Of a stretch of 49,371 bases of DNA, positions 3,222 through 47,283 are shown in pieces. The notes under the pieces were generated by a model that was not told the DNA's origin, did not search any database, and saw nothing but the letters and a program-made list of their open reading frames with translations. Source of the DNA: Gemmataceae bacterium (GTDB taxonomy: Bacteria; Planctomycetota; Planctomycetia; Gemmatales; Gemmataceae); contig SIAQ01000024.1 in the NCBI GenBank assembly GCA_009697105.1, positions 1-49,371 of the forward strand. Direction: 5' to 3'. The position numbers and the translations under genes were made by a program. The stretch's first letter is position 1, and every line of letters begins with the position of its first letter.

Positions 3222-3280
3222 AAGCCCAGGGGTGAGCGTGGCGAACCCCTGGGATTGCAAACCTCTGTTCCCTTGGGCTT
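3222..3280. repeat. palindrome family D, 9 nt after pyrB stop
   Basis: An imperfect inverted repeat, AAGCCCAGGGG...CCCTTGGGCTT, with an inner CAGGGGT/ACCCCTG pairing. It is related to the copies at 21072-21139 and 36224-36304. Confidence 0.75.
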
Positions 3281-3294
3281 ACGAAGGTAGTTCC

Positions 3295-4103
3295 ATGACC
3301 GTAGCTTCAGTACTCGAAAAAACCGAACGGCCGGCTTTTCCACCCGATGAATTGCTCATTTCAGAGGATGGTGAAAACTTGGAATCCGATTGGCATCGCA
3401 TCGAACTCAACCTACTGATCGAGTTGACCGACCAGTGGATAACTGGCCGCGATGATTACTTCGTTGGCGGCAATATGTTCATCTACTTCGACGAAGAGCA
3501 CGCTCGCAATCGCAATTTTCGCGGGCCGGATTATTTCTTCGTCTGGGGAGCGGAATCGGTTGCGAGAATACTGGGCTATCCGGAAGGAAGAAATGCAATT
3601 TCCGAACGTAATTTTTGAGCTGCTTTCACCTTCATACAGCGGAAATGGATCGCAACGAGAAGAAAGATGTCTACGAACGCCAATTTCGTACGCCCGAGTA
3701 TTTTTGGTACGATCCGGAGGATAACATTCTCAAAGGCTGGCAACTCAGCGATGAAATCTACCAGCCGATCAAGCCTAACGAAAAGGGTTGGTTGTTCTCC
3801 GAGCAATTGAACGTTTGGATCGGCAAATGGATTGGCGTTCACAGGGGCAAAAAAACCATTTGGATTCGGTTTTTTTCCCCTGACGGCGTGCTCGTTCCAA
3901 CCATCGCTGAATCAAATGATGTCGCCCAGGCTCAGGCACGGGCAGCGCAGCAGAAAGCCAAGCTCGCGCAACAACAGGCCGAGTTCGCGCAGCAGAAGGC
4001 CGAGATCGCGCAGCAGTCATTGGACGAACAACGACGACGCGCCGAGGCGGCTGAAGCGGAACTTGCCCAATTGCGGAAACTCCTGGAGAATAAAAAAGGC
4101 TAA
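3295..4103 (+). pseudogene. Uma2 family (DUF820) putative endonuclease, two frameshifts
   Basis: Uma2 proteins have a PD-(D/E)XK nuclease-like fold and are very abundant in planctomycetes and cyanobacteria; their role is not settled. The family sequence is spread over three frames. An N-terminal part ending ...RGPDYFFVWGAESV is in the frame starting at ATG 3295. It continues as RLREYWAIRKEEMQF...LLSPS in the next frame, then as TAEMDRNEKKDVYERQF...RFFSPDG in the third. The breaks lie near 3559-3563 and 3632-3636, each explained by one extra base. The C-terminal 55 residues form a Gln/Ala/Glu-rich coiled coil, as is common in this family. It lies between pyrB and pyrC' and ends 4 nt before the pyrC' start, so it looks like an accessory gene inserted into a pyrimidine operon and then broken. 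Confidence 0.85.
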
Positions 4104-4107
4104 CCCC

Positions 4108-5798: not shown

Positions 5799-5848
5799 AG
5801 CAACCTCCGATTCCATTAAACCACCGAATAGGGGCGCTGGAATCGATT

Positions 5849-6097: not shown

Positions 6098-6101
6098 GGC
6101 A

Positions 6102-6434
6102 TTACTCCGGATACATTGTAATCAGTCGTGGGAAGTCCATGCCAGAGTCAATTTGCCAAACGCTGCGGAAGGGAATGGCTTTGCCGCTTGGACTGACGAG
6201 CGGAGCCACGATCTCGTAGCATTGACCATAATCGTTGCTCGATTCGCCGCTGACCTCGGCACTGAGATGCTGCATGCGCAGATCAAGCTCCAACCGCATC
6301 CAATCTTCGGCGGAGTAGCCCAGCGCGAGCAACAGTCGGGCTTTCGTTCCGCCCTTGCGATGCGCCGTATTCAGCAGATAATCGCGGAGCTTTTCCGGCG
6401 CGATCACCTCCTTCTCGGCATTCCGGATCTTCAT
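6102..6434 (-). CDS. DUF6883 domain protein
   Basis: A 110-aa protein matching DUF6883 (NAEKEVIAPEKLRDYLLN at the start, then a GTKARLLLALGYS helix and a central GQCYEIVAPLVSPSG). Its start ATG overlaps the stop of the restriction enzyme by four bases (ATGA), and its GGAGGGG ribosome binding site is inside the last codons of that gene. The function is unknown. Related domains occur at the C-termini of some toxin-like or phage proteins, and the family is commonly paired with DUF4926. The coupling suggests it is made in a fixed ratio to the enzyme, as an accessory or immunity-like factor (inference). Confidence 0.85.
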   Translation of the reverse strand: MKIRNAEKEVIAPEKLRDYLLNTAHRKGGTKARLLLALGYSAEDWMRLELDLRMQHLSAEVSGESSNDYGQCYEIVAPLVSPSGKAIPFRSVWQIDSGMDFPRLITMYPE

Positions 6435-9310
6435 GCCGTCCCCTCCATAACAGCGGTGGCCTTGTCCGCATCGGCCGTACTCGCCGTCTCGCTTCCGGCT
6501 TGCTCGACGATCTTGATCTCCTCCGGCGTCAGTCCGTAGAGTTCGTAGACCAGGTTGTCAATCTGCCAATCCGTCGCCGCGATCTGCGTTTCCAGGCTCT
6601 TCTTCTCGTGCGGCGTTTTGGCGGCGGAGAGTTGCTTGTGGAGGGTGAGCATTTGTGAGGCGAGTTCGCCAATGTTCTTCGTCCGCGCAGCATCGTTTGG
6701 CATTTTCGGAATCGGCAGGCGCCGGAGCTCGGCCAAGGTTGTTTGTCGAAAATCATCCTTTGTCGCGATTGACGACGTGTTCACGTAAAGGTAAGAGATT
6801 AGGCGGCTATTCAGGATTCCCAATACATAAAACACGTTCCAATCTAAGGAAGTGAGAAGGAATGGATTGATATCTTTCTTGAAAACCATCTTGGCATCAC
6901 TGTATGTGGCGAGGAGTCGGTCCTGGCGGCTGATGACCCGTCGAATCAGAATCTTCGGCTCCGCCTCGTAAAATCGTCGCAACGACGGAGAATCCTCGAG
7001 GGTCGTATATTCGGCTTTCTCTATTTTCAACTCGTAGCGATGCGCCTGGCCAGTCGTGAGAAAGGGATACGAGCCGAGAAGAGGCAAGCTGGTAATGGCG
7101 AAGCGGTTTCCAGCAAGCCCTTGCGTGGAGATCGAAAAACTTCCAAGCTGCGAGAACTTTGGATCGGCGGAGACACGGTTGAAAATCAATTGTGCGCCCG
7201 GATTCAGAATAACTTTGTAGTCCGGCCCAGTGACCAAGCCGGTGTTCACGACGTTGTATTTCACGGCTTCAAGATCAGCGACGACACGCTTCTTCGCGAA
7301 GCAATAAATCGAGTATTCGGCGGATGGCGAGCGCGAAAGCACATAAACTCCAGTGTCAACGTAGGCGTCCTTGAACACATCAAAGGGTAAATTCACGAGC
7401 CGACAGACTCCGGCCTTCTTGAACAAGCGCTCCCTCAGCTTGGCATAGTTCTCACCCGTTTGCCAGGTTACGGAAGAGATAAATCCGACCAAACCAGAGC
7501 TGGAAAGCCTTTGCAAAAGCGAGAGGATAAAGATCACAGACGAATCATATTTGCGTTCAAGCTCTGGATGCCGGGCCTGAAAATACTTACTTTCATATTC
7601 GGACATCATTTCGATTGGGATATACGGCGGGTTCCCGATCACCGCGTCGAAGCCACCGGCTTTCATGATGGCGGGGAACTTGGCGTTCCAGTCGAAGACG
7701 TTGATGCGGTAGCGTTCTTCTTCGTCGAACAGCGTCAACTGTTGGCCGTCGTAGAAGTCGGGGCCGATCAGGCTGTTGCCGCACTTGATGTTGCTGGCGA
7801 GATCGGGTAGCGCGCGTTCATGGAACAGAAAGAGCTGGCGTTCGAGCGTTTGCTGCGATTCGCCTTCGAGCACTTTCAAAAGCAGCGAAAGCTTGGTGAC
7901 TTCGACGGCTTGCGGATCGATATCGACGCCGTAGATGTTGTTGAGCAGGATGCGCTTCTTCTCGGCACTGGTGAGATGCCAGGCCCCGCCGCGGCCCTGG
8001 AAGAGTTCCTTGCTGGGTTTGTCGGTGCTGGCTTCGATATAGCGGTCGCGATACCAATCGAGGAGAAACTGGTACGCGCCGAGCAGGAAGGACCCGGAGC
8101 CGCAGGCGGGATCGAGCACGCGGAGCTTGGCGGCCTGCCTGGGTGTTTTGCCTTCGAGCAGTTTGCCGACGGTGTTCTTGACGATGTAATCGACGATGTA
8201 GGTCGGCGTGTAGTAGACGCCGCCGGCCTTGCGGACGTCGGGCTTTTCCTCGACGATGGCGCGATGGTTGTCCGTCAGGCGGATGACTTTGCCGAGGAAT
8301 TGCTCGTAAACCTGGCCGAGAATCTCGGCGGGCAGCACGGAGAATTCATACGGGCTATCGGGGTAGTACAGGCTCTTGAAGATTTCCTTGAGCAGCTTGT
8401 CGTCGATATTGAGCGCCGTAGTGAGTTCATCGTGCGATTCGGGCCGATCGGGTTCCTTGGTGAAATGGAATAGGCCGGAATTATAGCGCTCGTCGGCTTT
8501 GCGAAAAAGGTCTTGCAATCGGCCATAGACGGCGGCGCCGTTCTGCAATGCGCCGAGTTGGCCATAATGCTCGACGCCGCGATCCTCGCACATGCGTAGG
8601 AAGAGGACGCGATCGATTGTAACCTGGACGGCATAGTTGAGTTCGCGCTGGCTGAGTTGCGGATTGCGCAGGGCGATGTTCTTCGCCAGGGTTTCGCGCC
8701 AGCCTTCGATCTCTTTCAGGAAGGCGGTATCGACCGTGGCTGTGTCTTTTTTTAGCTTGCTGGTTTCGGCATATTTATCGAACAAGCCTTTGAGGACCGC
8801 GTCCTTGGAGAATGTTGCCGCGATGGTATCCCATTGCTCAGCGTAATCGGTGAACGTCAGGTAGCGGACGCGCGCCGCCGTGGCTTTGTCGGTTTGCGCG
8901 GGTTTGATGCGGCAATCGTAGACGGCGAATTCTTCAAAATCGGTAAGGACCGAGAGCGGCAGTTTCGCGGACCAGGCATACCGGCGAAGCTGGAACGCTG
9001 GCTCCGGGTCGATCTTCAAATTGATCGATGGCCGCTTCGCTTCGAGAAAAAACTTGCGCGTGCCGCCGACGCGGAAGCAGTAGTCGGGGGCTTTGGTCAC
9101 GCCGCCGACTTTGATCGCGTCCTCGTGAATGACATCCTTGTACGCCTCGGCGAAGCCGGCGGTATTGTCGATGTCCCAACCGAGACATTTGAAAAAAGGA
9201 TCGATGAACTCGCGCCGAACTTGCGTTTCGTTGTAGTTGCCCGAGCGGTACGAATCGCTATTGCGAGCGAAGCGGTCGATCAGTTCGATGATTTCGCGCG
9301 GGGCGGTCAT
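6431..9310 (-). CDS. type IIG restriction endonuclease/methyltransferase (Eco57I/TaqI-like)
   Basis: A single-chain restriction-modification enzyme of 959 aa that methylates adenine at its target site and cleaves unmodified DNA. An N-terminal PD-(D/E)XK nuclease domain is seen with D76 and E90-A-K92 (PDY...LEAKRP) inside a type I R-like N-terminal fold. The Mrr/HsdM-like linker leads to the N6-adenine methyltransferase motifs: LDPACGSGSFL at 399-409 (SAM binding), DIDPQAVEVTKLSL, and NPPY at 560-563 (catalytic). The C-terminal half is a TaqI-like target recognition domain with a helical tail. All key residues are present. It is first in a minus-strand operon with DUF6883 and DUF4926 genes. 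No separate specificity subunit is present, and the recognition site cannot be read from sequence. Confidence 0.93.
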   Translation of the reverse strand: MTAPREIIELIDRFARNSDSYRSGNYNETQVRREFIDPFFKCLGWDIDNTAGFAEAYKDVIHEDAIKVGGVTKAPDYCFRVGGTRKFFLEAKRPSINLKIDPEPAFQLRRYAWSAKLPLSVLTDFEEFAVYDCRIKPAQTDKATAARVRYLTFTDYAEQWDTIAATFSKDAVLKGLFDKYAETSKLKKDTATVDTAFLKEIEGWRETLAKNIALRNPQLSQRELNYAVQVTIDRVLFLRMCEDRGVEHYGQLGALQNGAAVYGRLQDLFRKADERYNSGLFHFTKEPDRPESHDELTTALNIDDKLLKEIFKSLYYPDSPYEFSVLPAEILGQVYEQFLGKVIRLTDNHRAIVEEKPDVRKAGGVYYTPTYIVDYIVKNTVGKLLEGKTPRQAAKLRVLDPACGSGSFLLGAYQFLLDWYRDRYIEASTDKPSKELFQGRGGAWHLTSAEKKRILLNNIYGVDIDPQAVEVTKLSLLLKVLEGESQQTLERQLFLFHERALPDLASNIKCGNSLIGPDFYDGQQLTLFDEEERYRINVFDWNAKFPAIMKAGGFDAVIGNPPYIPIEMMSEYESKYFQARHPELERKYDSSVIFILSLLQRLSSSGLVGFISSVTWQTGENYAKLRERLFKKAGVCRLVNLPFDVFKDAYVDTGVYVLSRSPSAEYSIYCFAKKRVVADLEAVKYNVVNTGLVTGPDYKVILNPGAQLIFNRVSADPKFSQLGSFSISTQGLAGNRFAITSLPLLGSYPFLTTGQAHRYELKIEKAEYTTLEDSPSLRRFYEAEPKILIRRVISRQDRLLATYSDAKMVFKKDINPFLLTSLDWNVFYVLGILNSRLISYLYVNTSSIATKDDFRQTTLAELRRLPIPKMPNDAARTKNIGELASQMLTLHKQLSAAKTPHEKKSLETQIAATDWQIDNLVYELYGLTPEEIKIVEQAGSETASTADADKATAVMEGTA

Positions 9311-11579: not shown

Positions 11580-11590
11580 GGGGCTTCGAT

Positions 11591-11654
11591 TAGCCGCGAC
11601 GCGCAGCAGCGGAGCGCGGAATCGAAAAACTCGCTCCGCTGCGCGTCGCGGCTA
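11591..11654. repeat. palindrome family A between convergent genes
   Basis: TAGCCGCGACGCGCAG...CTGCGCGTCGCGGCTA, arms about 23 bp with one three-base bulge and a short loop. It lies between the convergent nadE and oxidoreductase genes. The right arm supplies the TAG stop (11654-11652) and the last Val codon (GTT) of the oxidoreductase. Confidence 0.9.
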
Positions 11655-12653
11655 AACAAGCTTCAGCAATATCTTCCCGCCGCGCGCCGATTTCTCGACA
11701 TGCTCGATCGCTTGGGACAACTGGTCGAGCGTGTAGGTGGCGGCCACCGGCGTCGTCAGGATGCCGGCGCGCATTAGCGTGATGATCTGGCGGAACAGGC
11801 CGAGCATGCGCAGCACGCCCTGGTTCTTGACCCATTCGGAGAGCCAAAAGCCTTCGATGACGCGCTGAGCGCTCATCAGCGAGCGCGGCTCGAGCGAGAT
11901 CGGCTCGCCGGACAGTGTGCCGTAGAGCAGTAGCCTCCCCTGCGGCGCGAGTGACTTCACGAGTTCGCAGACACCTGCCCCGCCAACGCAATCGATGGCG
12001 TACGGGACCATCGCCCCGCCGGTGATCTCGGCGACGCGGGCGGGGATGTCGTCGTCAACGCTTGACAGCACGGCATCGGCGCCGAGCTGCGTCAGTTCGC
12101 TTGCCAGTTCCTTGCGGCGGACGACGTTGATGGTGTGAAAACCAAGGTGCTTGCCGAGCCGAATGATCATTTGGCCCAGAGCGCTGCCTGCCGCGGATTG
12201 AAGCAGCCAGCCGCCGCGGCCAATGTGAAGCACGCGCTGAGTCAGGACGAGAGCGGTAGCGGGATTGACGAAGAACGCGGCGACTTGTTCATCGGGCAGG
12301 TCGTCGGGCACGGGCACGACGTTGCGAGCGGAGAGGACGACATGCTCGGCCCAATTCCCGCTTGTGCCGTTGAGCACCGCCACACGGCGACCGACGCGCA
12401 GGCCACGGAGTTTCGCCAGCCAACCGCCGCCAACCGACTCGATAACGCCGACGCCTTCAAAGCCAGGCGTTGCGGGCAAAGTGGGCAGTCGGCCATAGAC
12501 GCCGCGCACCATCATCAAATCGGACGGGTTGATCGGCGACATCCGCATGCGCACCCGCACCTCACCCGATTGCGGCTCCGCGGGCATCGGGATGTCGCGA
12601 ACCGTCAACACTTCGCGTGGATCGCCGAAACGGTCGAATACAACGGCTTTCAT
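11652..12653 (-). CDS. medium-chain dehydrogenase/reductase, 2-enoyl thioester reductase-like
   Basis: A 333-aa NAD(P)H-dependent oxidoreductase of the zinc-independent MDR superfamily. The sequence INPSDLMMVRGVYGRLPTLP and the following GFEGVGVI resemble the MECR/ETR (trans-2-enoyl-thioester reductase) and quinone oxidoreductase branches. The nucleotide fold is marked by QSAAGSALGQMIIRLGKHLG. The structural and catalytic zinc cysteine pattern of true alcohol dehydrogenases is absent. The substrate cannot be fixed; fatty-acid enoyl reduction is possible. ATG 12653 has GGAGAGA about 9 nt upstream. The stop codon lies inside the family-A palindrome. Confidence 0.85.
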   Translation of the reverse strand: MKAVVFDRFGDPREVLTVRDIPMPAEPQSGEVRVRMRMSPINPSDLMMVRGVYGRLPTLPATPGFEGVGVIESVGGGWLAKLRGLRVGRRVAVLNGTSGNWAEHVVLSARNVVPVPDDLPDEQVAAFFVNPATALVLTQRVLHIGRGGWLLQSAAGSALGQMIIRLGKHLGFHTINVVRRKELASELTQLGADAVLSSVDDDIPARVAEITGGAMVPYAIDCVGGAGVCELVKSLAPQGRLLLYGTLSGEPISLEPRSLMSAQRVIEGFWLSEWVKNQGVLRMLGLFRQIITLMRAGILTTPVAATYTLDQLSQAIEHVEKSARGGKILLKLV

Positions 12654-14350: not shown

Positions 14351-14380
14351 AAACAACATCAAACAACATCCAACTTGGTT

Positions 14381-14442
14381 TAGCCGCGATGCGCCAGCGG
14401 AGCGCGAGCTTTATCCCGCGCTCCGCTGGCGCGTCGTGGCTA
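14381..14442. repeat. palindrome family A
   Basis: TAGCCGCGATGCGCCAGCGG with its partner CCGCTGGCGCGTCGTGGCTA and a short spacer; two positions differ between the arms. Confidence 0.9.
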
Positions 14443-14489
14443 AACAAAATCTTTCACAACTGACTTTGCGTATCGTCGTCGGCCTGTGT

Positions 14490-14636: not shown

Positions 14637-14712
14637 CCGTGGGGCAGGATTTCTAGCCTGCCGAAGCTTGCGGGTGGTCAAAATACGGCAGGCTGGAAAG
14701 CCTGCCCCACGG
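14637..14712. repeat. palindrome family E flanked by 21-nt direct repeats
   Basis: CCGTGGGGCAGG...CCTGCCCCACGG with inner TTCTAGCCTGCCG/CGGCAGGCTGGAA pairing. It is related to 40863-40917. TCAAAT-N2-CCCTTGAGGAAG-type direct repeats flank it at 14601-14621 and 14717-14737, with two mismatches. Confidence 0.85.
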
Positions 14713-15733: not shown

Positions 15734-15952
15734 ATGATCCAAACAGTCGAAGCGGTTGTCGACTCCGCCGGTCGGGTTCATTTGCTCGGTGAGGTCCATG
15801 TCGCCAGTCCCCGGCGGGCGCTGGTGACGGTGCTGGAAGAGGCGGCAGCGGTACCGGGCGAGACCGCGTTGCTGGCGGAATCGGCTCTGGCAGTGGATTG
15901 GTCTCGGCCGGAGGAGGACACGGCGTGGTCACACCTTCAACCGGGGAAGTAG
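15734..15952 (+). CDS. antitoxin of a MazF/PemK-type toxin-antitoxin pair
   Basis: A 72-aa protein beginning MIQTVEAVVDSAGRVHLLGE, a strand-rich N-terminus like that of AbrB/MazE-like antitoxins. The acidic C-terminus with SRPEEDTAW is typical of antitoxin tails that bind the toxin. GGAGG lies just ahead of ATG 15734. The next gene, encoding a MazF-like toxin, starts inside its last codons (28-nt overlap), so the two are co-translated. Such antitoxins normally neutralise the toxin and repress their own promoter. Confidence 0.8.
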   Translation: MIQTVEAVVDSAGRVHLLGEVHVASPRRALVTVLEEAAAVPGETALLAESALAVDWSRPEEDTAWSHLQPGK

Positions 15953-16272
15953 TCCTGGTCCCATTCCCGTTCTCGGATCTCTCAAAGTCGAAGGTTCGGC
16001 CAGCAGTTTGCTTGGCCCACGCGGATCGTGGGGACTGGATTCTTTGTCAAATCACGAGCAACCCTTACGGCGATCCTACGGCAGTGGCGCTTGATGCGCC
16101 GGACTTCGCCTCGGGCGGATTCCTGGTCGCCAGTTGCGCACGCCCTGGCAAGCTGTTCACAGCTCACGCTGGGTTGATAGTCCGCTCGGTCGGTGTCCTC
16201 ACCTCTGCAGCATTCGCGCGGGTGCTAACGGCGGTTGTGTCGGTACTCCAACCGCCGACAAATGGTAGCTAA
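15925..16272 (+). CDS. MazF/PemK-family toxin (endoribonuclease)
   Basis: A 115-aa protein with the PemK/MazF core. The start VVTPSTGEVVLVPFPFSDLS is followed by KVRPAVCLA and by QITSNPYGD; a conserved RPGKLFTAHAGLIV lies near the end. MazF proteins cut mRNA at short sequences. GTG 15925 is chosen because GAGGAGG at 15911-15917 is well spaced; an ATG-like start at 15898 would add residues outside the family. It overlaps the antitoxin by 28 nt. Confidence 0.85.
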   Translation: MVTPSTGEVVLVPFPFSDLSKSKVRPAVCLAHADRGDWILCQITSNPYGDPTAVALDAPDFASGGFLVASCARPGKLFTAHAGLIVRSVGVLTSAAFARVLTAVVSVLQPPTNGS

Positions 16273-16343: not shown

Positions 16344-16420
16344 GCGAGCCTAGCCGCGTAAGCGGCAGGTTGAACATGTTGACACCAAAGTCAACCTGCC
16401 GCTTACGCGGTTAGGCTTGC
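16344..16420. repeat. palindrome family B
   Basis: GCGAGCCTAGCCGCGTAAGC...GCTTACGCGGTTAGGCTTGC, with the arms continuing inward through GGCAGGTTGA/TCAACCTGCC. It lies 17 nt beyond the stop of the minus-strand Tat protein. Confidence 0.9.
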
Positions 16421-16436: not shown

Positions 16437-17732
16437 TCATCGTTCTGCTATCATCCCCACATCACGCCGTTCCGGCTGGTTGCCGAGCGTGCGCCAGGAT
16501 TCGCCCGTCTCTCGTACCGTACGGAAATCGCGGGCGTGGTAGGCGATGTCCAGGTGCGGCGTTTCGATCCTCGAACCGGCGGCGCGGCTGCGCATCACGG
16601 CGTCGGTCAGGCCGGTCGTCAGCAGCGTTCGTTCGATCGGGTACGGCGATCTGCAGTTCACGAAATGATTCTGGATTGCATGCGACAATGCCATGAACAG
16701 GCAGCGATTGCCATACGGCCCCGTGTAGAATCGTGTCGCTCGGGGACGGTCTTCACCGGCGAGTCGGCAGGCGACGTTCCAGCGCACCGAACTCGCGCCG
16801 ACTTTGAGCATCGTCGCTCGGAAGCCATCGCGGTATTCAATCAACAATCCATGCGGCTCGGCGGCACGCTCACGCGGGATCGGTTGGCGGATGTCCGGCG
16901 CGTTCTTGCCAAACTCCGCTTCGAGTGCCGACTGGGCTAGCCGCAGCGACCATCGGCCCTGGCGAGCGGCGTCGAACAGGGCATCGCCACGCAGAAACTC
17001 GACGGCCCGGACGCCTGATTCACCGCCGCGCCGAGCTTCGACGATCGATTGCAGGTTTTCGAGAGCGTGAAAGTCATACGATTCGACCCCGCCGGCATGG
17101 ATCGACACGGCTTCTTGGATCCGTGAATTCCCAGGTAGCTCCATGGCCGGCTGACGTTGCGCGAGCGGCACGGAGCTGCCCGCCATCAGCGGGATGCCGA
17201 GTTCCTGACAGGTGTCGAACATTTGTCGCGCCCACGGCCATTCATACGACAGATGCTTGTCGTTGAAGATCGGCACGGAGCGTCGGGTGCGGCGCATGAC
17301 GGTTACAATTTCGTCGAAGAGACGTTTGCGTGGATACATGTGCTGGCCGAGCCGGTTGTACGGATACTCGCCATGCTCGCCGATCAACAGCACCGCATCG
17401 ACGGCGAGCGTATTGCCACCGAGGGTCAACGCGTCGGCGATAGTGCGATGCACGGGGATGTTGAACCGACGGGCGATTGCGTCGGTCGTGTCGCCTTCGG
17501 GGGAACGCTGATCGGCATAGAACGAGACGATGTCGCAGGGCGATGCCGTGCGCTTGCCGTTGAAGAGGTACGGCGTTAGAAAGTTTTCAAGGATGTTGTG
17601 GGCATGCGAGCGAAACCGGAAGACGGTATAGATCGCCGCAACGCGTGGCCGTGGCGCCGGCTGGGCCAGTAGGGAAGTCGCTGGCGCGACGGCGAGGCCT
17701 GCGAGCATCTGGCGGCGGGTGATCGGGTGCAT
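16437..17732 (-). CDS. Tat-exported protein of unknown function
   Basis: A 431-aa protein that starts MHPITRRQMLAGLAVAPATS, a twin-arginine signal (TRRQML) with a probable cut after Ala. The mature part is soluble and strand/helix mixed. It has YTVFRFRSHAHNILENFL near the start, VLLIGEHGEYPYN in the middle and IFNDKHLSYEW further on. No catalytic family is recognised with confidence. GAGAGGAAA lies ahead of ATG 17732. It follows an FGE-sialidase fusion gene on the same strand, separated by a palindrome. Confidence 0.7.
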   Translation of the reverse strand: MHPITRRQMLAGLAVAPATSLLAQPAPRPRVAAIYTVFRFRSHAHNILENFLTPYLFNGKRTASPCDIVSFYADQRSPEGDTTDAIARRFNIPVHRTIADALTLGGNTLAVDAVLLIGEHGEYPYNRLGQHMYPRKRLFDEIVTVMRRTRRSVPIFNDKHLSYEWPWARQMFDTCQELGIPLMAGSSVPLAQRQPAMELPGNSRIQEAVSIHAGGVESYDFHALENLQSIVEARRGGESGVRAVEFLRGDALFDAARQGRWSLRLAQSALEAEFGKNAPDIRQPIPRERAAEPHGLLIEYRDGFRATMLKVGASSVRWNVACRLAGEDRPRATRFYTGPYGNRCLFMALSHAIQNHFVNCRSPYPIERTLLTTGLTDAVMRSRAAGSRIETPHLDIAYHARDFRTVRETGESWRTLGNQPERRDVGMIAER

Positions 17733-17753
17733 GGCTGTTTCCTCTCAGGTTCA

Positions 17754-17817
17754 TATTGCCGCTTGCGGCTTAGCGCTCGGTGTGTCCCATGCGAGCGCTA
17801 AGCCGCAAGCGGCAATA
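17754..17817. repeat. palindrome family C
   Basis: TATTGCCGCTTGCGGCTTAG paired with CTAAGCCGCAAGCGGCAATA, continuing inward through CGCTCG/CGAGCG. The stop of the FGE-sialidase gene is 16 nt away. Confidence 0.95.
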
Positions 17818-17832
17818 CGAATGCGCGAAAGC

Positions 17833-19734: not shown

Positions 19735-19748
19735 TTTTTTCCTTTTTG

Positions 19749-19814
19749 TTTAGCCGCGACGCGCCAGCGGAGCGCGAGCTTCATCCCGCGCTCCGCTAGC
19801 GCGTCGCGGCTAAA
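19749..19814. repeat. palindrome family A
   Basis: TTTAGCCGCGACGCGCCAGC...CGCTAGCGCGTCGCGGCTAA with a short spacer. Its right arm holds the TAG stop (19812-19810) and last Val codon of the PlsY fusion gene. Confidence 0.95.
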
Positions 19815-21063
19815 CGGGATTGGGTTTATTCGCGGGTACGTTCCCCGCCATGGCCATGGCGACGGCCACGCAAGCGATGGCACCGAAATTTGCGAGCAAG
19901 CTGAAGCCGTGCCACATGCCGAATTCAGCGCGGGCGGCACGCATCTCCGTTTCGCGTTCCTCGTCTGCCGGCGAAGCCAGGTAGCGTTCCATATTGGCGT
20001 TGCGAGGAAGACGCAACTCGCTGACGTGTCGCTGCAACGGCCAACCGATCAATACAAGCGTGACGGCCGCGATGATGACGTTCACTCGCCAACGATGCAA
20101 ACGCGAACCATCGCCGGCTTTCATCCATGACATCGCCGTCGCCAGCGCGATGAACCCGCACGCACCCTGGATCGCAAAGTACCACAGAAAGATCGGTCCG
20201 ACCGCGTAACCCGCAGCCCGCGTGCCCTGTTCTTTCGGCGCGTTGACGGCGAGGTCCTTGATGTCGTTGTAGATCATGGGCCGCGGGAACCAGCTTTCGC
20301 GCTTCTTGCTCTCGCCGAGTTTCTCGAGGGTGCTAAAGAGCGACGGAGCGGCGACGAATGTAAAAAACACCGACATCCCGAACCACAATCCCAGAGCGAG
20401 CAGGTGCAGGCTTTTGTTGAACTGTTGCATGAGCAGATGGTCCTTGAGTTGATTTTCCGTACCGGCGATCAGCCGTTTAATATTGCCACGATGCCGAAGC
20501 ACGACAAGCAGCCCGGCGACGACGCAGAACCAGCTGCGAGGATTCGACAAATCCCACGCGGCCGGAGTTCGCAAGTGAGCAGCACATAACACAAGCACGC
20601 TGATGATCGACGCGAGCGACATGTAGCGAAACGCACAGAGCAAAATGCCCCAGATTGCAAACGCCGCCAGCATCGGGATCGGCAGCAGCACGGCGACAAC
20701 GCCCGCACCGGTGGCGACGCCCTTGCCGCCGCGAAATCGCAGGTAAACCGGAAAGCAATGTCCGAGAAACGCCGCAAGACCCGCGCCGACGGCGACCCAC
20801 CTATGCGACCAGAGTTCGCCGTCGAAGTGTGATTGTAACGCCTGGGCCATGCCGACCGCCCCGGCTCCCTTAGCGCAATCGAGTGCGAAGACAATGAATC
20901 CGAACTTGCGACCGAGCACCCTGCCAACGTTCGTGGCACCGATGTTGCCGCTACCCTGGGCGAAGATGTCGATGCCGCGCATGCGCGCGACGAGGAAGCC
21001 GAACGGAATGGCGCCAATCAGATACGCCGCGATGAGCGTCAATATGGCGGCGAGGAGGTCCAT
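19810..21063 (-). CDS. plsY: PlsY glycerol-3-phosphate acyltransferase fused to a DUF4149 membrane domain
   Basis: Residues 1 to about 205 are PlsY, which transfers acyl groups from acyl-phosphate to glycerol-3-phosphate at the inner membrane, the first step of phospholipid synthesis. Signatures are YLIGAIPFGFLVAR, GSGNIGATNVGR and RFRGGKGVATGAGV. Residues about 220-417 form a second multi-helix domain, FNKSLHLLALGLWFGMSVFF and onward, of the DUF4149/TMEM205-like type. PlsY alone is usually near 200 aa, so this is a fusion of two membrane units. ATG 21063 begins the PlsY domain; an upstream in-frame start would translate a palindrome. The stop lies in a family-A repeat. Confidence 0.9.
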   Translation of the reverse strand: MDLLAAILTLIAAYLIGAIPFGFLVARMRGIDIFAQGSGNIGATNVGRVLGRKFGFIVFALDCAKGAGAVGMAQALQSHFDGELWSHRWVAVGAGLAAFLGHCFPVYLRFRGGKGVATGAGVVAVLLPIPMLAAFAIWGILLCAFRYMSLASIISVLVLCAAHLRTPAAWDLSNPRSWFCVVAGLLVVLRHRGNIKRLIAGTENQLKDHLLMQQFNKSLHLLALGLWFGMSVFFTFVAAPSLFSTLEKLGESKKRESWFPRPMIYNDIKDLAVNAPKEQGTRAAGYAVGPIFLWYFAIQGACGFIALATAMSWMKAGDGSRLHRWRVNVIIAAVTLVLIGWPLQRHVSELRLPRNANMERYLASPADEERETEMRAARAEFGMWHGFSLLANFGAIACVAVAMAMAGNVPANKPNPV

Positions 21064-21071: not shown

Positions 21072-21139
21072 AAGCCCAAGGGTGAGGTACTCCGAACCCT
21101 TGGGATCCCAGAGGTTCGGAGTACCTCACCTCTGGGCTT
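21072..21139. repeat. palindrome family D
   Basis: AAGCCCAAGGGTGAGGTACT...AGTACCTCACCTCTGGGCTT, arms about 33 bp with few mismatches. It lies 12 nt beyond the stop of the sugar isomerase-like gene and 8 nt before the plsY start. Confidence 0.95.
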
Positions 21140-22021: not shown

Positions 22022-22081
22022 TTCCGCTTGCGGCTTAGCGCTCCGCATGGCGCCTTGCGGAGCGCTAAGCCGCAAGCGGAA
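22022..22081. repeat. palindrome family C
   Basis: TTCCGCTTGCGGCTTAGCGC...GCGCTAAGCCGCAAGCGGAA, arms about 25 bp and perfect. It lies 4 nt beyond the clpS stop. Confidence 0.95.
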
Positions 22082-22499: not shown

Positions 22500-22584
22500 G
22501 TTTAGCCGTTCGCCTTTGGCGAACGCGGACTCGACGATGGACGACAGCGAAGGCAACACGCTCGCCCAAGGCGAGCGGCTAAAC
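22500..22584. repeat. palindrome family F
   Basis: GTTTAGCCGTTCGCCTTTGG...CCAAGGCGAGCGGCTAAAC with a loop of about 45 bases. It abuts the TAG stop of the hydrolase-like gene at 22584. Confidence 0.85.
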
Positions 22585-23348: not shown

Positions 23349-23363
23349 ACGTGGTTCCTCTCG

Positions 23364-23429
23364 TCTAGCCGCGACGCGCCAGCGGAGCGTGATCACCATT
23401 CCGCGCTCCGCTGGCGCATCGCGGCTAGA
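23364..23429. repeat. palindrome family A
   Basis: TCTAGCCGCGACGCGCCAGC...GCTGGCGCATCGCGGCTAGA, lying just upstream of the hydrolase start and next to a second palindrome. Confidence 0.95.
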
Positions 23430-23454
23430 CTTTCGACGGTTGGGTTTGTCGTTT

Positions 23455-23537
23455 TTCCGAGCCGCGACCGTGAGGGAGCGACCGACATGATGCCGTGCGG
23501 TTTATCTTGGCCGCTCCCTCACGGTCTCGGCTCGGAA
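23455..23537. repeat. palindrome family I
   Basis: TTCCGAGCCGCGACCGTGAG...CTCACGGTCTCGGCTCGGAA, continuing inward through GGAGCG/CGCTCC. It lies 10 nt beyond the glycosyltransferase stop. Confidence 0.95.
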
Positions 23538-24727: not shown

Positions 24728-24803
24728 GCGAGCCTAGCCGCGTAAGCGGCAGGTTGAAGCGAGACGCCGTGATTCAACCTGCCGCTTACGCGGCTAGGCT
24801 CGC
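24728..24803. repeat. palindrome family B
   Basis: GCGAGCCTAGCCGCGTAAGC...GCTTACGCGGCTAGGCTCGC. The arms extend inward through GGCAGGTTGAA, giving 31 perfect base pairs around a loop of about 14. The right arm contains the stop codon of the DUF433 remnant. Confidence 0.97.
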
Positions 24804-28069: not shown

Positions 28070-28125
28070 TAGCCGCTCGCTTTCGGCGAGCGCAGACAGT
28101 CGCGCTCGCCAGAAGCGAGCGGCTA
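28070..28125. repeat. palindrome family F
   Basis: TAGCCGCTCGCTTTCGGCGA...GCCAGAAGCGAGCGGCTA, 8 nt after the fhcC stop. Confidence 0.9.
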
Positions 28126-28446: not shown

Positions 28447-28498
28447 TGCCTGCCGACTAGCGCCCGCTGGGAATGCAGCGAGCGCTAGTCGGCAGGCG
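28447..28498. repeat. palindrome family J
   Basis: GCCTGCCGACTAGCGC / GCGCTAGTCGGCAGGC, 16 perfect bp. It lies 23 nt after the small Cys-rich ORF and 18 nt beyond the stop of the small basic ORF on the other strand. Confidence 0.9.
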
Positions 28499-30535: not shown

Positions 30536-30622
30536 AATTTCAGATTGCAGATTTCAAATTGCAAATTGGAATACACGATACATGCATTTCAATCTGCAAT
30601 TTGAAATCTGCAATCTGAAATT
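30536..30622. repeat. AT-rich 28-bp inverted repeat between glnB and glnA
   Basis: AATTTCAGATTGCAGATTTC / GAAATCTGCAATCTGAAATT at the ends, with arms extending inward to 28 perfect bp; inner copies of ATTGCA/TGCAAT also occur. It lies 3 nt beyond the glnB stop. Confidence 0.97.
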
Positions 30623-35180: not shown

Positions 35181-35228
35181 CCGGCAGTGTAGGCAACGTT
35201 CTCTTATGAACGTTGCCTACACTGCCGG
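35181..35228. repeat. 20-bp perfect hairpin after the porin gene
   Basis: CCGGCAGTGTAGGCAACGTT / AACGTTGCCTACACTGCCGG around an 8-base loop, 33 nt after the porin stop. No T-tract follows. Confidence 0.97.
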
Positions 35229-36223: not shown

Positions 36224-36304
36224 AAGCCCAGGGGTGAGGTACTCCGAACCCCTGGGATGATTCCGCTACATCCCAGGGGTTCGGAGTACCTCACCCTTGG
36301 GCTT
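36224..36304. repeat. palindrome family D
   Basis: AAGCCCAGGGGTGAGGTACT...AGTACCTCACCCTTGGGCTT, arms about 36 bp with two mismatches, the longest of the family here. It lies 2 nt after the DUF6807 stop. Confidence 0.97.
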
Positions 36305-37958: not shown

Positions 37959-39276
37959 CGCATTCCGCACGGAGGCTCGGCACTATCGCGCCATCGTTGA
38001 GGAGTTGCGCCGCCGAAAGCTCGACTTCACCGACAACGCTCGGGGCTACCAGCCGATCGCGCTGACGCTGACCAATTCGCGTGAGCCGTTCCCGCATCAG
38101 AAAGAAGCGATGACCGCCTGGTGGAACGCCGGCGGGCGTGGCGTCGTCGTCTTGCCGACGGGTACGGGCAAAACGCTCGTCGCATTGCTCGCGATCGCCT
38201 ATGTCGGTCGGCCGGCGCTCGTCGTCACGCCGACGATCCCGCTCATGAACCAGTGGTATGGCGAAATGGCCCGCGCCTTTGCCGCTTGCGGCTTAGCGCT
38301 CAGCTTGGACCCATTGAGCGCTAAGCCGCAAGCGGAATCAGGAATCGGCCTCCTCGGCGGCGGGTACTACGAACTGCAACCGCTCACCGTCACTACCTAC
38401 GACTCCGCGTATATCCATCTCGAACGTTGGGGCAACAAGTACGGCCTGCTAATATTCGACGAATGCCATCACCTGCCCAGTGCGAGCTACCAGTTCGCCG
38501 CGGTCGGCGCCATTGCACCGTATCGTCTCGGCTTGACCGCGACGCCCGAACGTGCCGATGGCCGCGATACGTTGTACGCCGAACTCGTCGGCCCGATCAT
38601 CTATCGCCGCGAGATCCAACAACTGGCCGGCGAGTTCCTCGCCGACTATCGCGTCATCCGCATCGAAGTCGAACTGACGCCCGAGGAACGCGAGCGCTAC
38701 ACCCTGGCCCGCCAAACTTATCGCCAATTCGTCACCGATCACGGCATCTCCATGGGTTCGCCCAGCGGCTGGCAGCGCTTCCTGCAAATGACCTATCGCG
38801 AACCCGATGGCCGAGCCGCGTTTTTGGCCTATCGCGAACAGAAACGCATCTCGCTGGCCGCGCCGGCGAAGATCAATTTGCTCGACGATCTACTGCATCG
38901 CCACGCCCTCGATCGCGTCATCATCTTCACCTACGACAATGCCAGCGTGTACGAAATCGCCCGGCGATTCCTCGTCCCGGCGATCACGCATCAGACGAAG
39001 GCGCGCGAACGCCAGCAGATACTCGAACGCTTCCACAGCGGCGAGTACAACGTCGTCGTCACCAGCCAGGTGCTCAACGAAGGCGTGGATGTCCCCGCCG
39101 CCAACGTCGGCCTGATCCTGTCCGGCACGGGCAGCGTGCGCGAACACGTTCAACGACTTGGCCGCCTCTTGCGCAAACACGGCGATAAGCAAGCGATCCT
39201 GTACGAAGTCGTCAGCCGCGATACCGGCGAAGAGTATACGAGCGAACGCCGACGCCAGCACGAGGCGTATCGGTGA
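37864..39276 (+). CDS. SF2 helicase (XPB-like) carrying an in-frame palindrome
   Basis: A 470-aa helicase. Motif I is LPTGTGKT (98-104), motif II DECHH (199-203), motif III LGLTATPERAD; the second RecA domain has SQVLNEGVDVP and QRLGRLLRKHG (motif VI). This matches the XPB-like DNA helicases of bacteria and archaea. Residues 140-158 (ACGLALSLDPLSAKPQAES) are encoded by a family-C palindrome (38282-38335) placed between motif Ia and motif II. The flanks join well without it, and the frame is kept. The helicase is probably still functional, with a surface loop added. ATG 37864 has only a weak ribosome binding site. Confidence 0.9.
   Translation: MQITFDAGTLVLTGDAAQIESLPGCQFDSRIDAFRTEARHYRAIVEELRRRKLDFTDNARGYQPIALTLTNSREPFPHQKEAMTAWWNAGGRGVVVLPTGTGKTLVALLAIAYVGRPALVVTPTIPLMNQWYGEMARAFAACGLALSLDPLSAKPQAESGIGLLGGGYYELQPLTVTTYDSAYIHLERWGNKYGLLIFDECHHLPSASYQFAAVGAIAPYRLGLTATPERADGRDTLYAELVGPIIYRREIQQLAGEFLADYRVIRIEVELTPEERERYTLARQTYRQFVTDHGISMGSPSGWQRFLQMTYREPDGRAAFLAYREQKRISLAAPAKINLLDDLLHRHALDRVIIFTYDNASVYEIARRFLVPAITHQTKARERQQILERFHSGEYNVVVTSQVLNEGVDVPAANVGLILSGTGSVREHVQRLGRLLRKHGDKQAILYEVVSRDTGEEYTSERRRQHEAYR
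38282..38335. repeat. palindrome family C inside a coding sequence
   Basis: CCGCTTGCGGCTTAGCGCTC followed by A, paired with TGAGCGCTAAGCCGCAAGCGG: 21 perfect bp and a 12-base loop. It is the same family as 17754-17817 and 22022-22081, which lie between genes. Confidence 0.97.
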
Positions 39277-40661: not shown

Positions 40662-41105
40662 CGATTTTCCAATTGGGTTTTGGAACTGCCTATTGCCTCA
40701 ATTTAACACACCGTCAGATAAAGATCAAGAAGATTGCGCGGAAAGCGACGGGAGGGGGCAGGACAGCACTTGCGCACGCGTCGCGAGGCCCCGCACTCTC
40801 GATCCCAAATTTACAGATTTGAAGTTATACTATCGGTGCGAAAAGGCAGAGTTGACAGGTCCGTGGGGCCAGGCTTTCTAGCCTGGCCAGGCTGGAGGCT
40901 GGAAAGCCTGGCCCCACCTGCTCAAATCAAACTGGTCGGACCACTAGCGGCGTGAGCGATAGGTTCTGACAATCGCGAATGGAACCTTCCCCTCACGAGG
41001 CTAACCGTGTTGGGAAATTCGGATCGTTTTTCCGTAGCATTCGCCAAAGATTTCTGATAGTATACTTCCACACTACCCCCGTTTTCCTTCCTGCCGGAGA
41101 TTCGG
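40662..41105. other. divergent promoter region with a family-E palindrome
   Basis: No gene is seen. The interval separates divergent genes and has a palindrome (40863-40917). A TATACT box at 41061 would suit a promoter for the DUF1501 gene at 41106, but the -35 element is weak. Confidence 0.6.
40863..40917. repeat. palindrome family E
   Basis: GTGGGGCCAGGCTTTC / GAAAGCCTGGCCCCAC with a centre of further CCTGGCCAGG pairing, related to 14637-14712. Confidence 0.95.
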
Positions 41106-44139: not shown

Positions 44140-44213
44140 TTGGCGAGCCTAGCCGCGTAAGCGGCAGGTTGACGTGCCCGCAAACCTGCCGCTTACGCGG
44201 CTAGGCTCGCCAA
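44140..44213. repeat. palindrome family B
   Basis: TTGGCGAGCCTAGCCGCGTA...TACGCGGCTAGGCTCGCCAA, arms about 31 bp. It lies 10 nt beyond the PSCyt stop and separates it from the DUF1501 gene. Confidence 0.97.
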
Positions 44214-44223
44214 AGCGATCAAT

Positions 44224-47106
44224 TCACCGCGTGAAGATCATCTCCGGCGAATTCAGCGTTGCCCATATCACGTCCTCCATGCGTTCGCGCCATTCGCGTG
44301 TCAGACGCGGCGTTGGCGGGTCGCCGCGACGGGCGGCGGCTTCGAGCTGAATCTTGATCTCGCTTGCCTCCGGCATCAGATGATTCGACCACGAGATATA
44401 CCGCGGCGGCATGCGCTTCACCGGCACGATCACCGGCGACTTCACGATCCGCTCCGCGAAGCCCGGGCGCAGGTGCTCGGCGAGGCTCGCACGCTCATCC
44501 ACCGACAGCTTGCGCGTGTAGACACGCAGGAACAGGCGATCGACCAACTCCTCCGGCGATTGGCTTCGCAGGGCCAACTCGGTGATGCCGTGCTCGTCGG
44601 AAAGCCGAGTCAACCACGTGCCGACGACGCCGTTGGCGAGCAGGGCGGGCTGGAGCACATTAGGCGACACATCGCGATCGGTCAACGGGCTCGGCCGAGA
44701 CGGACGCCAGCCGAACGCTTCAAGCACGTCGATCACCGCCTGAACGCGCGGTAGGGAGAGGCTAGGGCGATCGCGTTCGTTCGAGGTCGAGGCGAACATC
44801 CACGAGCGGTGCGGCTTACCCATGCTGATCGAGTTCTTGATGTCGCGGGCGCCGTCCACATCGAGGCTGACTTCCTCGGTGTTCATCGGCCTACCGACGG
44901 CGTGAAATAGCGAATCGACAATCTGCTCCGCCGTCAATCGGCGCGGCACATGGGCGATGTGATACGGGTCGGCGTCCTTGTGCATCGGGTCGGCGACGCG
45001 CTGATAGGCGTGTGAATTCAGAATGAGCCGGGCGAGTTGCTTCATGTCGTAGCCGTTGCTCGCAACCTCTCGGCCCAACCAGGTTAGCAATTCGGGATGC
45101 GTCGGTTGGCCTTTCTCCCAGTCATCGACCGGTTCGACGATGCCGACGCCCATGAGCCGTTTCCAGACGCGATTGGCGATGACCTGAGCGAAGCGCTCGT
45201 TGCGAACGTCGGTAATGCGCTGAGCCAAGTCATCGCGCGATTTGCCTGCGTCGGCTTTGGAGGTCAAAGCGAACGGCCAGGCCGGCGCGACTTTCGTGCC
45301 GGGCTTGAGCGACACGGTGATGAGCGGCTTGCGGTCTTTGCCGTGGATTTTGTCGATCGGCACGCTACTTGTCACAGGCACGGCGAGCGGGGCTTCATTG
45401 AGCATGGCGGCGATGCTGAAGAGGTCCTTCTGCGTGGACTTGTGCCCCGGCGCGTCATGGCAGCGGGCACATTTCATTTGCACGCCGAGAAACGCCGACG
45501 CAATTATGACGCCTTTCTCCGCAAATGGCGCGTCGTTTTGCGATGCCATCGCGAATCCCGCCGGCCCGCCGTAGGAGTGGCTGCCTCGCATGCGAACCAA
45601 TTCCGTGACGAACAGGTCCATCGGCTTATTGTCGAGCATCGCTTCGTGAATCCACCAGCGAAACGGGCCGGTGTTGTTGAGCGTCGGGTTAAGAATGTTC
45701 GGATTCTCGGCCAAGACATCCTGCCAATAGCTCACCCAGTGGTCGGCCCAGCGCGGATCGTCAAGCAACTTGTCGATGACGCGAGCACGTTTGTCAACAC
45801 GAACGTCGGCGATGAACGCATCAATCTCGCTCGGCGTCGGCAGCACGCCGATGGTGTCGAGCGTCGCTCGGCGAAGGAACGTCAGATCGTCCGCGAGGCC
45901 CGGCAGTGGGCGACGCTTCAACCCGGCGGGATCATACGACGCGCCGCCGCGAATCCATTTACGCAATGTGTCGATCTCAATCGCCGTCAATCCGGGGCCT
46001 TGCGGCGGCATCTTTTCCATGGCTTCGGTGGCGATGAGGCGGGCGATCAACTCGCTCTTCTCCGGTTGGCCGGGCACGATCGCCGGCGTCTTCGATGCGC
46101 CGCCGCGCTGGGCGGAGACCAGATCGTCGAGCCGAAGTTTGCCCTTGACTTTGTCGCCTTGATGGCACGAGAAACACTTCGCTTGCAGGATCGGCTTGAC
46201 CTCGGCATGGTAATCGACGCCGCCCTTGAACTTGTCGCCGAGCACGAATGCGTCTTCGATTTTGGCAGCGAGGAAATGGTCGATAGCGTTGTGTGCCGGC
46301 ATGCCCTTGCTTAGCGAGGGAACGGCAATCGGCGGTTGCTTATCCAGCCAGCGTTTCGCCTCGGCGCGACGGCGTGCCCATTCATCGCCATGTTTCGCGA
46401 ATGCTTTCTTGCGTCGTTCGGCTTCGATTGCTTTGAGCCGCGCCGTCTCGGCTACTTCGTAGACTTTCCAACCGGCGTCGGTGTAGGCGACTTTCATCGA
46501 CGGCGCGATGAGGTGGAATGTCTCGGAGCCGGCAAGCGAAATCGCGGCGACGGTCTCGCCGAGTTCGGAGCGCATGATGCCGTTGCCTCGCTTGCCGCCG
46601 ACAATGGTCTCAAGCATGATGCGATGCGTCTTGCCGGTGCTGGCGAACGTCGTCCATCTCTCGCGATTACCCGGCGGCGCGTAGCGAAAGTCGGGGCCAA
46701 GGTCGAGATAGTTTGTCGGGATCGGCGAATGGCCATCGGTCAGCACCGGCACGAATGGCGTCGTCAGCAGCACTTCGCCATCAATCCACAGCTTGGTCGC
46801 ACCACGAGCCCGCAATAGAATGCGATGCTTGCCGGCGGGCAGTGTGATCTCAGCACTTGCACGCAGGAGAAACGGAATCGACCGATCGGCTCGCACCCCG
46901 GTGTCGATGTACTTGAACGGCACATGAAAGAAGCCGAAGGCAATGGCGTCAAAACGCTCCGTCGCGGCGGGGGCGTCCTTGGGCCATTCCTGCTTCTCGG
47001 TCAGGCCGCCTTCGCAGATTTCGACGCGCACTTTCGGCGGATCGTCGGCAAAGGTCGACGTGATACCGAATGAGAATATGCAAATCGCGGTCAGGATGGT
47101 GCGCAT
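44224..47106 (-). CDS. PSCyt1/DUF1549/DUF1553 (PSD1) exported cytochrome-like protein
   Basis: A 960-aa exported protein. After a signal peptide there is a PA14-like domain (about 50-200), then the PSCyt1 haem motif CFSCH at 311-315. DUF1549 follows from about 380 with a second CARCH near 610 (GVQMKCARCHDAPGHKSTQK). The C-terminal DUF1553 has NRVWKRLMGVGIVEPVDDW and LARLILNSHAYQR, and the last residues LNSPEMIFTR. These are the standard landmarks. It may oxidise or bind carbohydrate-linked substrates at the periplasm. ATG 47106 starts the signal; an upstream extension of the frame would translate repeat-G sequence. Confidence 0.93.
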   Translation of the reverse strand: MRTILTAICIFSFGITSTFADDPPKVRVEICEGGLTEKQEWPKDAPAATERFDAIAFGFFHVPFKYIDTGVRADRSIPFLLRASAEITLPAGKHRILLRARGATKLWIDGEVLLTTPFVPVLTDGHSPIPTNYLDLGPDFRYAPPGNRERWTTFASTGKTHRIMLETIVGGKRGNGIMRSELGETVAAISLAGSETFHLIAPSMKVAYTDAGWKVYEVAETARLKAIEAERRKKAFAKHGDEWARRRAEAKRWLDKQPPIAVPSLSKGMPAHNAIDHFLAAKIEDAFVLGDKFKGGVDYHAEVKPILQAKCFSCHQGDKVKGKLRLDDLVSAQRGGASKTPAIVPGQPEKSELIARLIATEAMEKMPPQGPGLTAIEIDTLRKWIRGGASYDPAGLKRRPLPGLADDLTFLRRATLDTIGVLPTPSEIDAFIADVRVDKRARVIDKLLDDPRWADHWVSYWQDVLAENPNILNPTLNNTGPFRWWIHEAMLDNKPMDLFVTELVRMRGSHSYGGPAGFAMASQNDAPFAEKGVIIASAFLGVQMKCARCHDAPGHKSTQKDLFSIAAMLNEAPLAVPVTSSVPIDKIHGKDRKPLITVSLKPGTKVAPAWPFALTSKADAGKSRDDLAQRITDVRNERFAQVIANRVWKRLMGVGIVEPVDDWEKGQPTHPELLTWLGREVASNGYDMKQLARLILNSHAYQRVADPMHKDADPYHIAHVPRRLTAEQIVDSLFHAVGRPMNTEEVSLDVDGARDIKNSISMGKPHRSWMFASTSNERDRPSLSLPRVQAVIDVLEAFGWRPSRPSPLTDRDVSPNVLQPALLANGVVGTWLTRLSDEHGITELALRSQSPEELVDRLFLRVYTRKLSVDERASLAEHLRPGFAERIVKSPVIVPVKRMPPRYISWSNHLMPEASEIKIQLEAAARRGDPPTPRLTREWRERMEDVIWATLNSPEMIFTR

Positions 47107-47133
47107 GATTGATACCTTGTTATTTTCCTCGGT

Positions 47134-47283
47134 GTCAGAGCCACGCACGAAGTAAGTGGTTAAGACATACCGAAAACGTAAATTCAAACCACTTGCAACT
47201 CTGTCAGAGCCTCGCACGAAGCAAGTGGTTTGAACATACCGCGATCGGAAATTCAAACCACTTACTTCGTGCGTGGCTCTGAC
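47134..47283. repeat. complex repeat G (two direct units and one inverted)
   Basis: GTCAGAGCCACGCACGAAGT at 47134, GTCAGAGCCTCGCACGAAGC at 47203 and the inverse ACTTCGTGCGTGGCTCTGAC at 47264. The inverted unit encodes the last residues SEPRTK and the stop of the deacetylase gene. Confidence 0.93.

What the first reader, a model, noticed from the sequence alone, without database searches (positions are those of the whole stretch)
3222..47283. Long palindromes sit at nearly every gene 3' end
Inverted repeats with 12-36-bp arms occur within 0-35 nt of the stop codon of at least fifteen genes: pyrB, nadE, the MDR oxidoreductase, the Tat protein at 16437, the FGE-sialidase, plsY, the sugar isomerase, clpS, the hydrolase at 22584, GT2, the DUF433 remnant, fhcC, glnB, porin, DUF6807, PSCyt and NodB. 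Most lack a T-tract, so they are not standard intrinsic terminators. Several sequence families (A to J) occupy the same kind of place. This could be a system of 3'-end-targeting mobile elements, or structural 3' ends that protect or stop transcripts. It is the main unexplained order in this window.
Basis: seen in the sequence. Interest (0 to 1): 0.78.

Follow-up and report, generated by a model that had tools for sequence, protein, structure and literature searches.

The report
REPIN repeats parked beside stop codons
The long palindromes after many genes in this planctomycete window are copies of many small hairpin-forming repeat families of a known type (REPINs) that travel with their own small transposases, and they tend to settle right behind stop codons, usually one per gene end.

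Summary
The window holds 21 strong palindromes; 16 of 39 called genes have one within 35 nt after the stop (17 with a decayed one after pyrB). In 817 kb of the same draft genome there are 264, against 0 in one Markov control, and 162 of 593 genes (27%) carry one. They form 17 families of three or more copies. Most look like REPINs: two inverted REP-like hairpins. All nine clear RAYT transposase genes found in this genome and its closest held relative have flanking palindromes, seven of them of families named here. So they are transposase-linked elements of a published kind, not intrinsic terminators. Stop preference is real and exceeds a start-avoidance model. Two further patterns: codirectional gaps hold far fewer double palindromes than expected (7 against 25; repeated in the relative), divergent gaps show no deficit; and 11 of 47 gaps occupied in both genomes hold different families. 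More distant congeners mostly lack palindromes at the same genes, which argues against a needed 3'-end function. Known kind, with atypical hairpin feet and an intriguing one-per-stop rule.

The parts
3223..3281 (.). decayed F2 REPIN after pyrB (one intact arm, one degenerate)
   Evidence: raw sequence; gene stop at 3213
11590..11655 (.). F10 REPIN between convergent nadE and MDR oxidoreductase; the latter's TAG stop overlaps the element
   Evidence: F1 in the same gap in G004
14378..14445 (.). F10 REPIN in a divergent gap (no stop nearby)
14637..14712 (.). F12 palindrome (GTGG foot) in a divergent gap
16347..16417 (.). F6 REPIN, 19 nt after the stop of 16437-17732(-)
17750..17821 (.). F1 REPIN, 11 nt after the stop of the FGE-sialidase gene
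   Evidence: about half missing in G004
19748..19815 (.). F10 REPIN whose GTTTAG end carries the TAG stop of plsY
   Evidence: F4 element with the same flanks in G004
21072..21139 (.). F2 REPIN, 11 nt after the sugar isomerase stop
   Evidence: F1 in G004
22022..22081 (.). F1 REPIN, 4 nt after the clpS stop
   Evidence: same family in G004
22500..22584 (.). F4 REPIN touching the TAG stop of the hydrolase
   Evidence: same family in G004
23363..23430 (.). F10 REPIN over the 5' end of the hydrolase gene call
23455..23537 (.). F5 REPIN, 10 nt after the GT2 stop
24728..24803 (.).
28070..28125 (.). F4 REPIN, 7 nt after the stop of 27262-28062(+)
28448..28497 (.). palindrome without an assigned family
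30536..30622 (.). F17 AT-rich palindrome, 3 nt after the P-II (glnB) stop; not REP-like
35181..35228 (.). palindrome without an assigned family, 33 nt after the porin stop
36224..36304 (.). F2 REPIN, 2 nt after the DUF6807 stop
38282..38335 (.). F1 REPIN inside the XPB-type helicase gene, 54 bp, in frame
40863..40917 (.). F12 palindrome in a divergent gap, absent from G004
44140..44213 (.). F6 REPIN, 10 nt after the PSCyt stop
47202..47284 (.). F9 REPIN overlapping the stop of the NodB/FG-GAP gene
   Evidence: F1 in G004

Best explanation
Most of these palindromes are REPINs: pairs of inverted REP-like hairpins, non-autonomous elements copied or moved by cognate RAYT (HuH, Y1-type) single-strand transposases. 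Many families live side by side, and those that could be traced each have their own RAYT gene. New copies settle mainly just behind stop codons, where they harm least and perhaps where the transposase finds single-stranded DNA; one copy then occupies the place. Shown: families, paired hairpins, RAYT flanking, conserved catalytic residues, stop attraction, one-per-stop deficit. Inferred: that RAYTs move them, that they are or were recently active, and why stops are favoured.
For: 264 palindromes in 817 kb against 0 in one control; 17 families of 3 or more copies; arms of most families contain an inner stem. RAYT ORFs are flanked by the same families: in the own genome F10 and F13 on both sides and F2 on both sides; in G004 F4, F5 and F1 on both sides, F7 on one side, and two further, unassigned families on both sides. 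That is 9 of 9 clear hits of profile A1, 8 of them on both sides; a tenth, weak hit (C67, E 0.0018) is not flanked. Wider sets, which overlap with these: 18 of 22 own and congener loci have a palindrome at one side or more; 37 of 80 RAYT loci from genome contigs do, 18 on both sides, those 18 alike on the two sides, with 0 of 138 control windows. Two histidines (HxH), a lysine and the tyrosine are invariant in 15 aligned RAYTs. Stop attraction: in codirectional gaps of 60 nt or more, 39% of 99 lie within 20 nt of the stop against 16% in a start-avoidance-only model; in G004 59% of 32 against 14% under uniform placement. Deficit of doubles: 7 codirectional gaps against 24.5 expected, 2 convergent against 7.9, divergent 8 against 8.2.
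Against: No movement was observed. No clean empty site with exact REPIN junctions was found; the cleanest empty site belongs to an F3-type MITE. 43 of 80 loci and 4 of 22 have no flanking palindrome at my thresholds. Most families lack the canonical GT[AG]G foot, and the 10 RAYTs tested score below the NCBIfam REP_Tyr_transpos cut-off (best 65.6 of 80). Several families, among them F3, F6, F8, F9 and F12, have no RAYT among the nine. F1 and F4, abundant in G000, have their RAYT only in G004, where it looks interrupted. F16, F17 and several unassigned palindromes are probably not REPINs.
Confidence: 0.9

Rival explanations
1. Functional 3'-end structures: the host keeps a hairpin at gene ends to stop transcripts or protect them from exonucleases, and the families are interchangeable raw material.
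For: Tight stop proximity, one per stop, and different families at the same gap in G000 and G004 (11 against 6.1 expected in strata, P 0.008).
Against: T-rich tails at background level, 9 of 148; 73% of genes have none; 46 of 264 in divergent gaps; in four more distant congeners 2 of 19 orthologous ends occupied here are occupied; copies inside what looks like the pheS-pheT operon (names read from the translations).
Confidence: 0.12
2. Passive pattern: insertions are random and selection merely removes those that hurt promoters, RBS or coding sequence.
For: Copies are rare inside gene calls (18 of 264) and near starts (56 of 593 genes against 162 at stops). Over all 42 convergent cases the median distance to the nearer stop equals the random one (12.0 against 12.4).
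Against: A start-avoidance model fitted on divergent gaps predicts 16% within 20 nt of stops, seen 39%; in convergent gaps of 60 nt or more 48% of 21 lie near a stop against 17%. The G004 convergent set does not repeat this (20% against 24%, 5 palindromes).
Confidence: 0.3
3. Ordinary DDE-type MITEs with terminal inverted repeats and target duplications.
For: Some F3 elements sit inside a larger inverted repeat (TGACGCC ends); one (C101:35616) has a clean empty site in G004 with an apparent 4-bp duplication, read by eye.
Against: Seen for F3-type elements only; I saw no outer repeats or duplications in the printed comparisons of the other REP-like families, and those are tied to RAYTs.
Confidence: 0.1

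Closest known systems
REPINs with RAYTs (Bertels and Rainey 2011, PMC3116915; abstract and passages seen)
   Same: Inverted REP pairs forming one hairpin, many dispersed extragenic copies, family-specific RAYT genes.
   Different: They report REP doublets spread randomly in the extragenic space of P. fluorescens SBW25, in three groups; here they crowd at stops and rarely double there, in at least a dozen families.
GTAG- and CGTC-tagged REPs (Di Nocera 2013, PMC3733652; abstract, passages, sections 15 and 16, part 1 of section 17 read)
   Same: Mostly between unidirectional or convergent ORFs, within 20 bp of 3' ends, REP ends supplying TAG stops, copies inside repair genes, families in Planctomycetes.
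   Different: Most families here carry TTAG, TAAG, CAAG or CGAG feet instead of GTAG; exchange of families at orthologous intergenic sites is not described in the parts read.
TnpA_Y1 subclass 2.6 and class 3 (PMC6006769; passages, sections 12 and 27 read)
   Same: RAYT-like genes flanked by atypical hairpins without GT[AG]G; class 3 mainly in Planctomycetes, with a Y----Q motif, which five congener RAYTs here show by eye (L116, L118, L127, L128, L133).
   Different: The class 3 foot is given as CnGA, which I did not see as a rule here. Subclass was not tested with their profiles.

Membership tests
REPIN | two REP sequences in inverted orientation forming one hairpin | tested here: met
   inner stem within the arms of most families
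REPIN | many dispersed, mostly extragenic copies | tested here: met
   264 in 817 kb, 18 within gene calls
REPIN | cognate RAYT gene flanked by the same REP family | tested here: met
   F1, F2, F4, F5, F7, F10, F13; not found for F3, F6, F8, F9, F12 in the own genome or G004 (F12-like around RAYTs of G001 and G002)
REPIN | mobility shown by excision or new insertion | tested here: inconclusive
   differences in presence and family against G004, but no clean REPIN empty site
canonical GTAG REP | GT[AG]G tetranucleotide at the hairpin foot | tested here: not met
   by eye: present in F11, F12 and F14; F1, F2, F4-F6, F9, F10, F13 have other feet ending in AG
RAYT / TnpA_REP | HuH motif and catalytic tyrosine | tested here: met
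   H105, H107, K125, Y174 invariant in 15; Y1_Tnp hits
RAYT / TnpA_REP | NCBIfam NF047646 REP_Tyr_transpos at its cut-off of 80 bits | tested here: not met
   10 of 10 match at E 0.01 or better, best 65.6 bits, none over the cut-off
intrinsic terminator | T-tract after the hairpin | tested here: not met
   9 of 148, background 5.6%
MITE (DDE type) | terminal inverted repeats and target duplication | tested here: inconclusive
   one clean F3 case (4 bp, by eye); not seen for the REP-like families

The most novel reading that the evidence does not exclude
A gene's 3' end works as a single REPIN slot: the transposase is drawn to the stretch behind a stop, a resident REPIN excludes a second one, and the resident can be exchanged in place for a REPIN of another family, by RAYT exchange at a shared foot or by gene conversion, so that the hairpin stays while its sequence turns over. 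The two cases with kept flanks (plsY end, F10 in G000 and F4 in G004; inside the XPB-type helicase gene, F1 and an F7-like element, frame kept) both pair families with shared end sequences. The XPB pair is still 78% identical and was scored 'shared' by my script, so there exchange and plain divergence are not told apart.
Probability: 0.3. Interest if true: 0.65.

Novelty: new member of a known kind. Interest (0 to 1): 0.42.

Why it matters
It turns the 'main unexplained order' of the window into a known class of element, and adds a genus in which many REPIN families share one genome and one kind of place. That makes an open question testable: whether REPINs sit behind stops because the transposase puts them there or because selection leaves them there. 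The one-per-stop deficit and the different families at the same gap in near relatives are measurable handles on this.

Tried and rejected
Intrinsic terminators: rejected, no excess of T-tracts. Rfam: only a c-di-GMP riboswitch matched in the window. Strong Pfam Y1_Tnp hits as the partners: rejected; of the 16 such loci (18 loci less L082 and L083) only L084 had a palindrome within 400 nt. Most of the weaker Y1 hits examined proved to be flanked (18 of 22). Conserved 3'-end function across the genus: not supported; 44 ortholog 3' ends in four congeners (genes counted more than once), 2 of 19 against 3 of 25. Target-site motif: T-rich positions just outside F1, F4, F5 and F6, but these may belong to the elements, so no target was claimed. 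Exchange test: the naive Fisher value 0.0045 (11 of 22 against 12 of 68) was replaced by a stratified one, P 0.008; both leave out the 36 same-family gaps, five of which are unassigned palindromes in both genomes. By eye several 'only' cases are decayed shared copies, two more look like exchanges (C30|8, C30|12), and a few 'different' cases involve MITEs, nesting or an unassigned palindrome (C47|62, C30|6, C101|35), so 11 is approximate. Statements on what is not in print rest on the searches and on the passages read; PMC2817692 and PMC8049555 were seen in passages.
Full report
What is there. The window is one contig (C82, 49,371 bases) of a 5.44-Mb draft genome in 187 contigs. It looks planctomycete: 78 of the 80 RAYT relatives listed (best 80 of 213 found) bear planctomycete titles, and planctomycete-type domains such as PSCyt1 are present. 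With a stricter measure (score 16 or more, loop up to 45) the window has 21 palindromes, and 16 of 39 gene calls have one within 35 nt after the stop; pyrB adds a decayed one. In 816,732 bases from 12 contigs, 264 palindromes were found, and none in one Markov control. The 11 contigs other than the window were chosen among those that hold family F6, which biases copy number but hardly position. 162 of 593 genes (27%) have one at the 3' end, so 'nearly every gene' is too strong.

Families and build. Clustering by shared 10-mers gives 17 families of at least three copies, the largest with 44, 35, 32, 22, 20 and 14, and leaves 36 palindromes alone. Arms of most families hold a stem of their own, so the whole is a pair of inverted REP-like units. 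Reading the arms by eye, many families have AG directly before the inner stem: GTTTAG-CCGC (F4, F10), CGAG-CCGC (F5), CTAG-CCGC (F6), TAAG-CCGC (F1), CAAG-CCC (F2, F13), AGAG-CCGC (F9), GTAG-CCGAATTC (F11). Only F11, F12 and F14 show the canonical GT[AG]G. F16 and F17 are AT-rich and not of this build.

Transposases. Pfam's Y1_Tnp gives five matches in the genome. The two weak ones (L082, L083) are flanked on both sides by F10 and F13 palindromes; the three stronger ones are not. Fifteen aligned RAYTs share two histidines, a lysine and the tyrosine. A profile from them finds three clear RAYTs in the own genome, plus one weak partial hit that is not flanked, and six in G004. All nine clear ones have flanking palindromes, eight on both sides: F10, F13 and F2 in the own genome; F4, F5, F1, F7 (one side) and two unassigned families in G004. 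The F4 and F1 RAYTs of G004 look interrupted by an in-frame stop or split. Among 22 own and congener loci, 18 have a palindrome at one side or more (three of these are G004 genes of the nine). In that set TTAG occurs near the start of 49 of 110 element ends, GTAG in 16.

Position. In codirectional gaps the median distance is 14 nt to the stop and 71 to the start. A model fitted to divergent gaps, where placement is nearly uniform beyond about 20 nt from starts, predicts 16% within 20 nt of the stop in gaps of 60 nt or more; 39% are seen, above the highest of 4000 simulations (30%). In convergent gaps of 60 nt or more it is 48% of 21 against 17%, P 0.0006, although over all 42 convergent cases the median equals the random one. 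In G004 the codirectional figure is 59% of 32 against 14% under uniform placement; the convergent one, with 5 cases, shows nothing. The stop codon of 21 of 593 genes overlaps a palindrome; 12 of these are TAG, against 145 of 593 overall.

One per stop. If palindromes fell on eligible gaps at random, 24.5 codirectional gaps would hold two or more; 7 do. Convergent: 2 against 7.9. Divergent: 8 against 8.2. In G004: 0 against 10.0, 0 against 3.7, and 4 against 3.7; on the five G004 contigs hardly aligned to the sample, 0 against 3.7 in codirectional gaps, P 0.005. A limit on how far such gaps can grow could give the same result.

Comparison with relatives. G004 is 87-97% identical over the longer aligned stretches. 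Of 59 G000 palindromes with both flanks placed, 41 are shared, 6 partly, 12 absent. Of 126 orthologous gaps, 36 hold the same family (five of them unassigned in both), 11 different families, 11 only G000, 12 only G004, 56 none. Among gaps without a shared family, occupation by different families exceeds a stratified null (11 against 6.1, P 0.008). At the plsY end the flanks match and F10 stands in G000, F4 in G004; in most other cases the near flanks differ too, so independent insertion is possible. Inside the XPB-type helicase gene a 54-bp F1 element in G000 faces an F7-like element of equal net length in G004, 78% identical; the archaeal XPB structures aligned lack about 18 residues there. 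In more distant congeners palindromes are rarer (0.09, 0.11, 0.12 and 0.23 per kb against 0.32), and occupied ends are not conserved.

Reading. The elements are REPINs of a RAYT system with atypical feet. The general placement behind stops and the TAG supply were published in 2013. What these data add is the number of families with their own RAYTs in two sister genomes, the one-per-stop deficit, and the different families at kept gaps. Why stops are favoured stays open: targeting and selection both fit, and I give selection acting alone 0.3.

Noticed in passing
38282-38335: F1 REPIN read in frame as 18 residues inside an XPB-type DNA repair helicase; the archaeal XPB structures aligned lack them; an F7-like element sits there in G004.
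   Followed up: partly
L083:2786-3504: A RAYT with F13 REPINs lies between what look like pheS and pheT (names read from the translations, no family search).
   Followed up: partly
L177:1414-2117: The F2 RAYT and two neighbouring ORFs all end in QAHG plus stop, read from the F2 elements, so REPINs can add C-terminal tails as well as stops.
   Followed up: no
L040:15616-15668: F3-type element within a larger inverted repeat (TGACGCC ends), absent from G004 with an apparent 4-bp target duplication: a MITE built around a REP-like core.
   Followed up: partly
26670-26784: c-di-GMP-I-GGC riboswitch match (RF03167, 68.2 bits, plus strand).
   Followed up: no
26246-26339: Inverted repeat with CCACGGATA / TATCCGTGG, by eye like a palindrome at C185:17259-17343 that G004 lacks.
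   Followed up: no
15898-16272: ORF with a weak PemK/MazF-like match (E 2.8e-6).
   Followed up: no
6431-9310: Eco57I-like restriction-modification protein with TaqI-type specificity domain.
   Followed up: no
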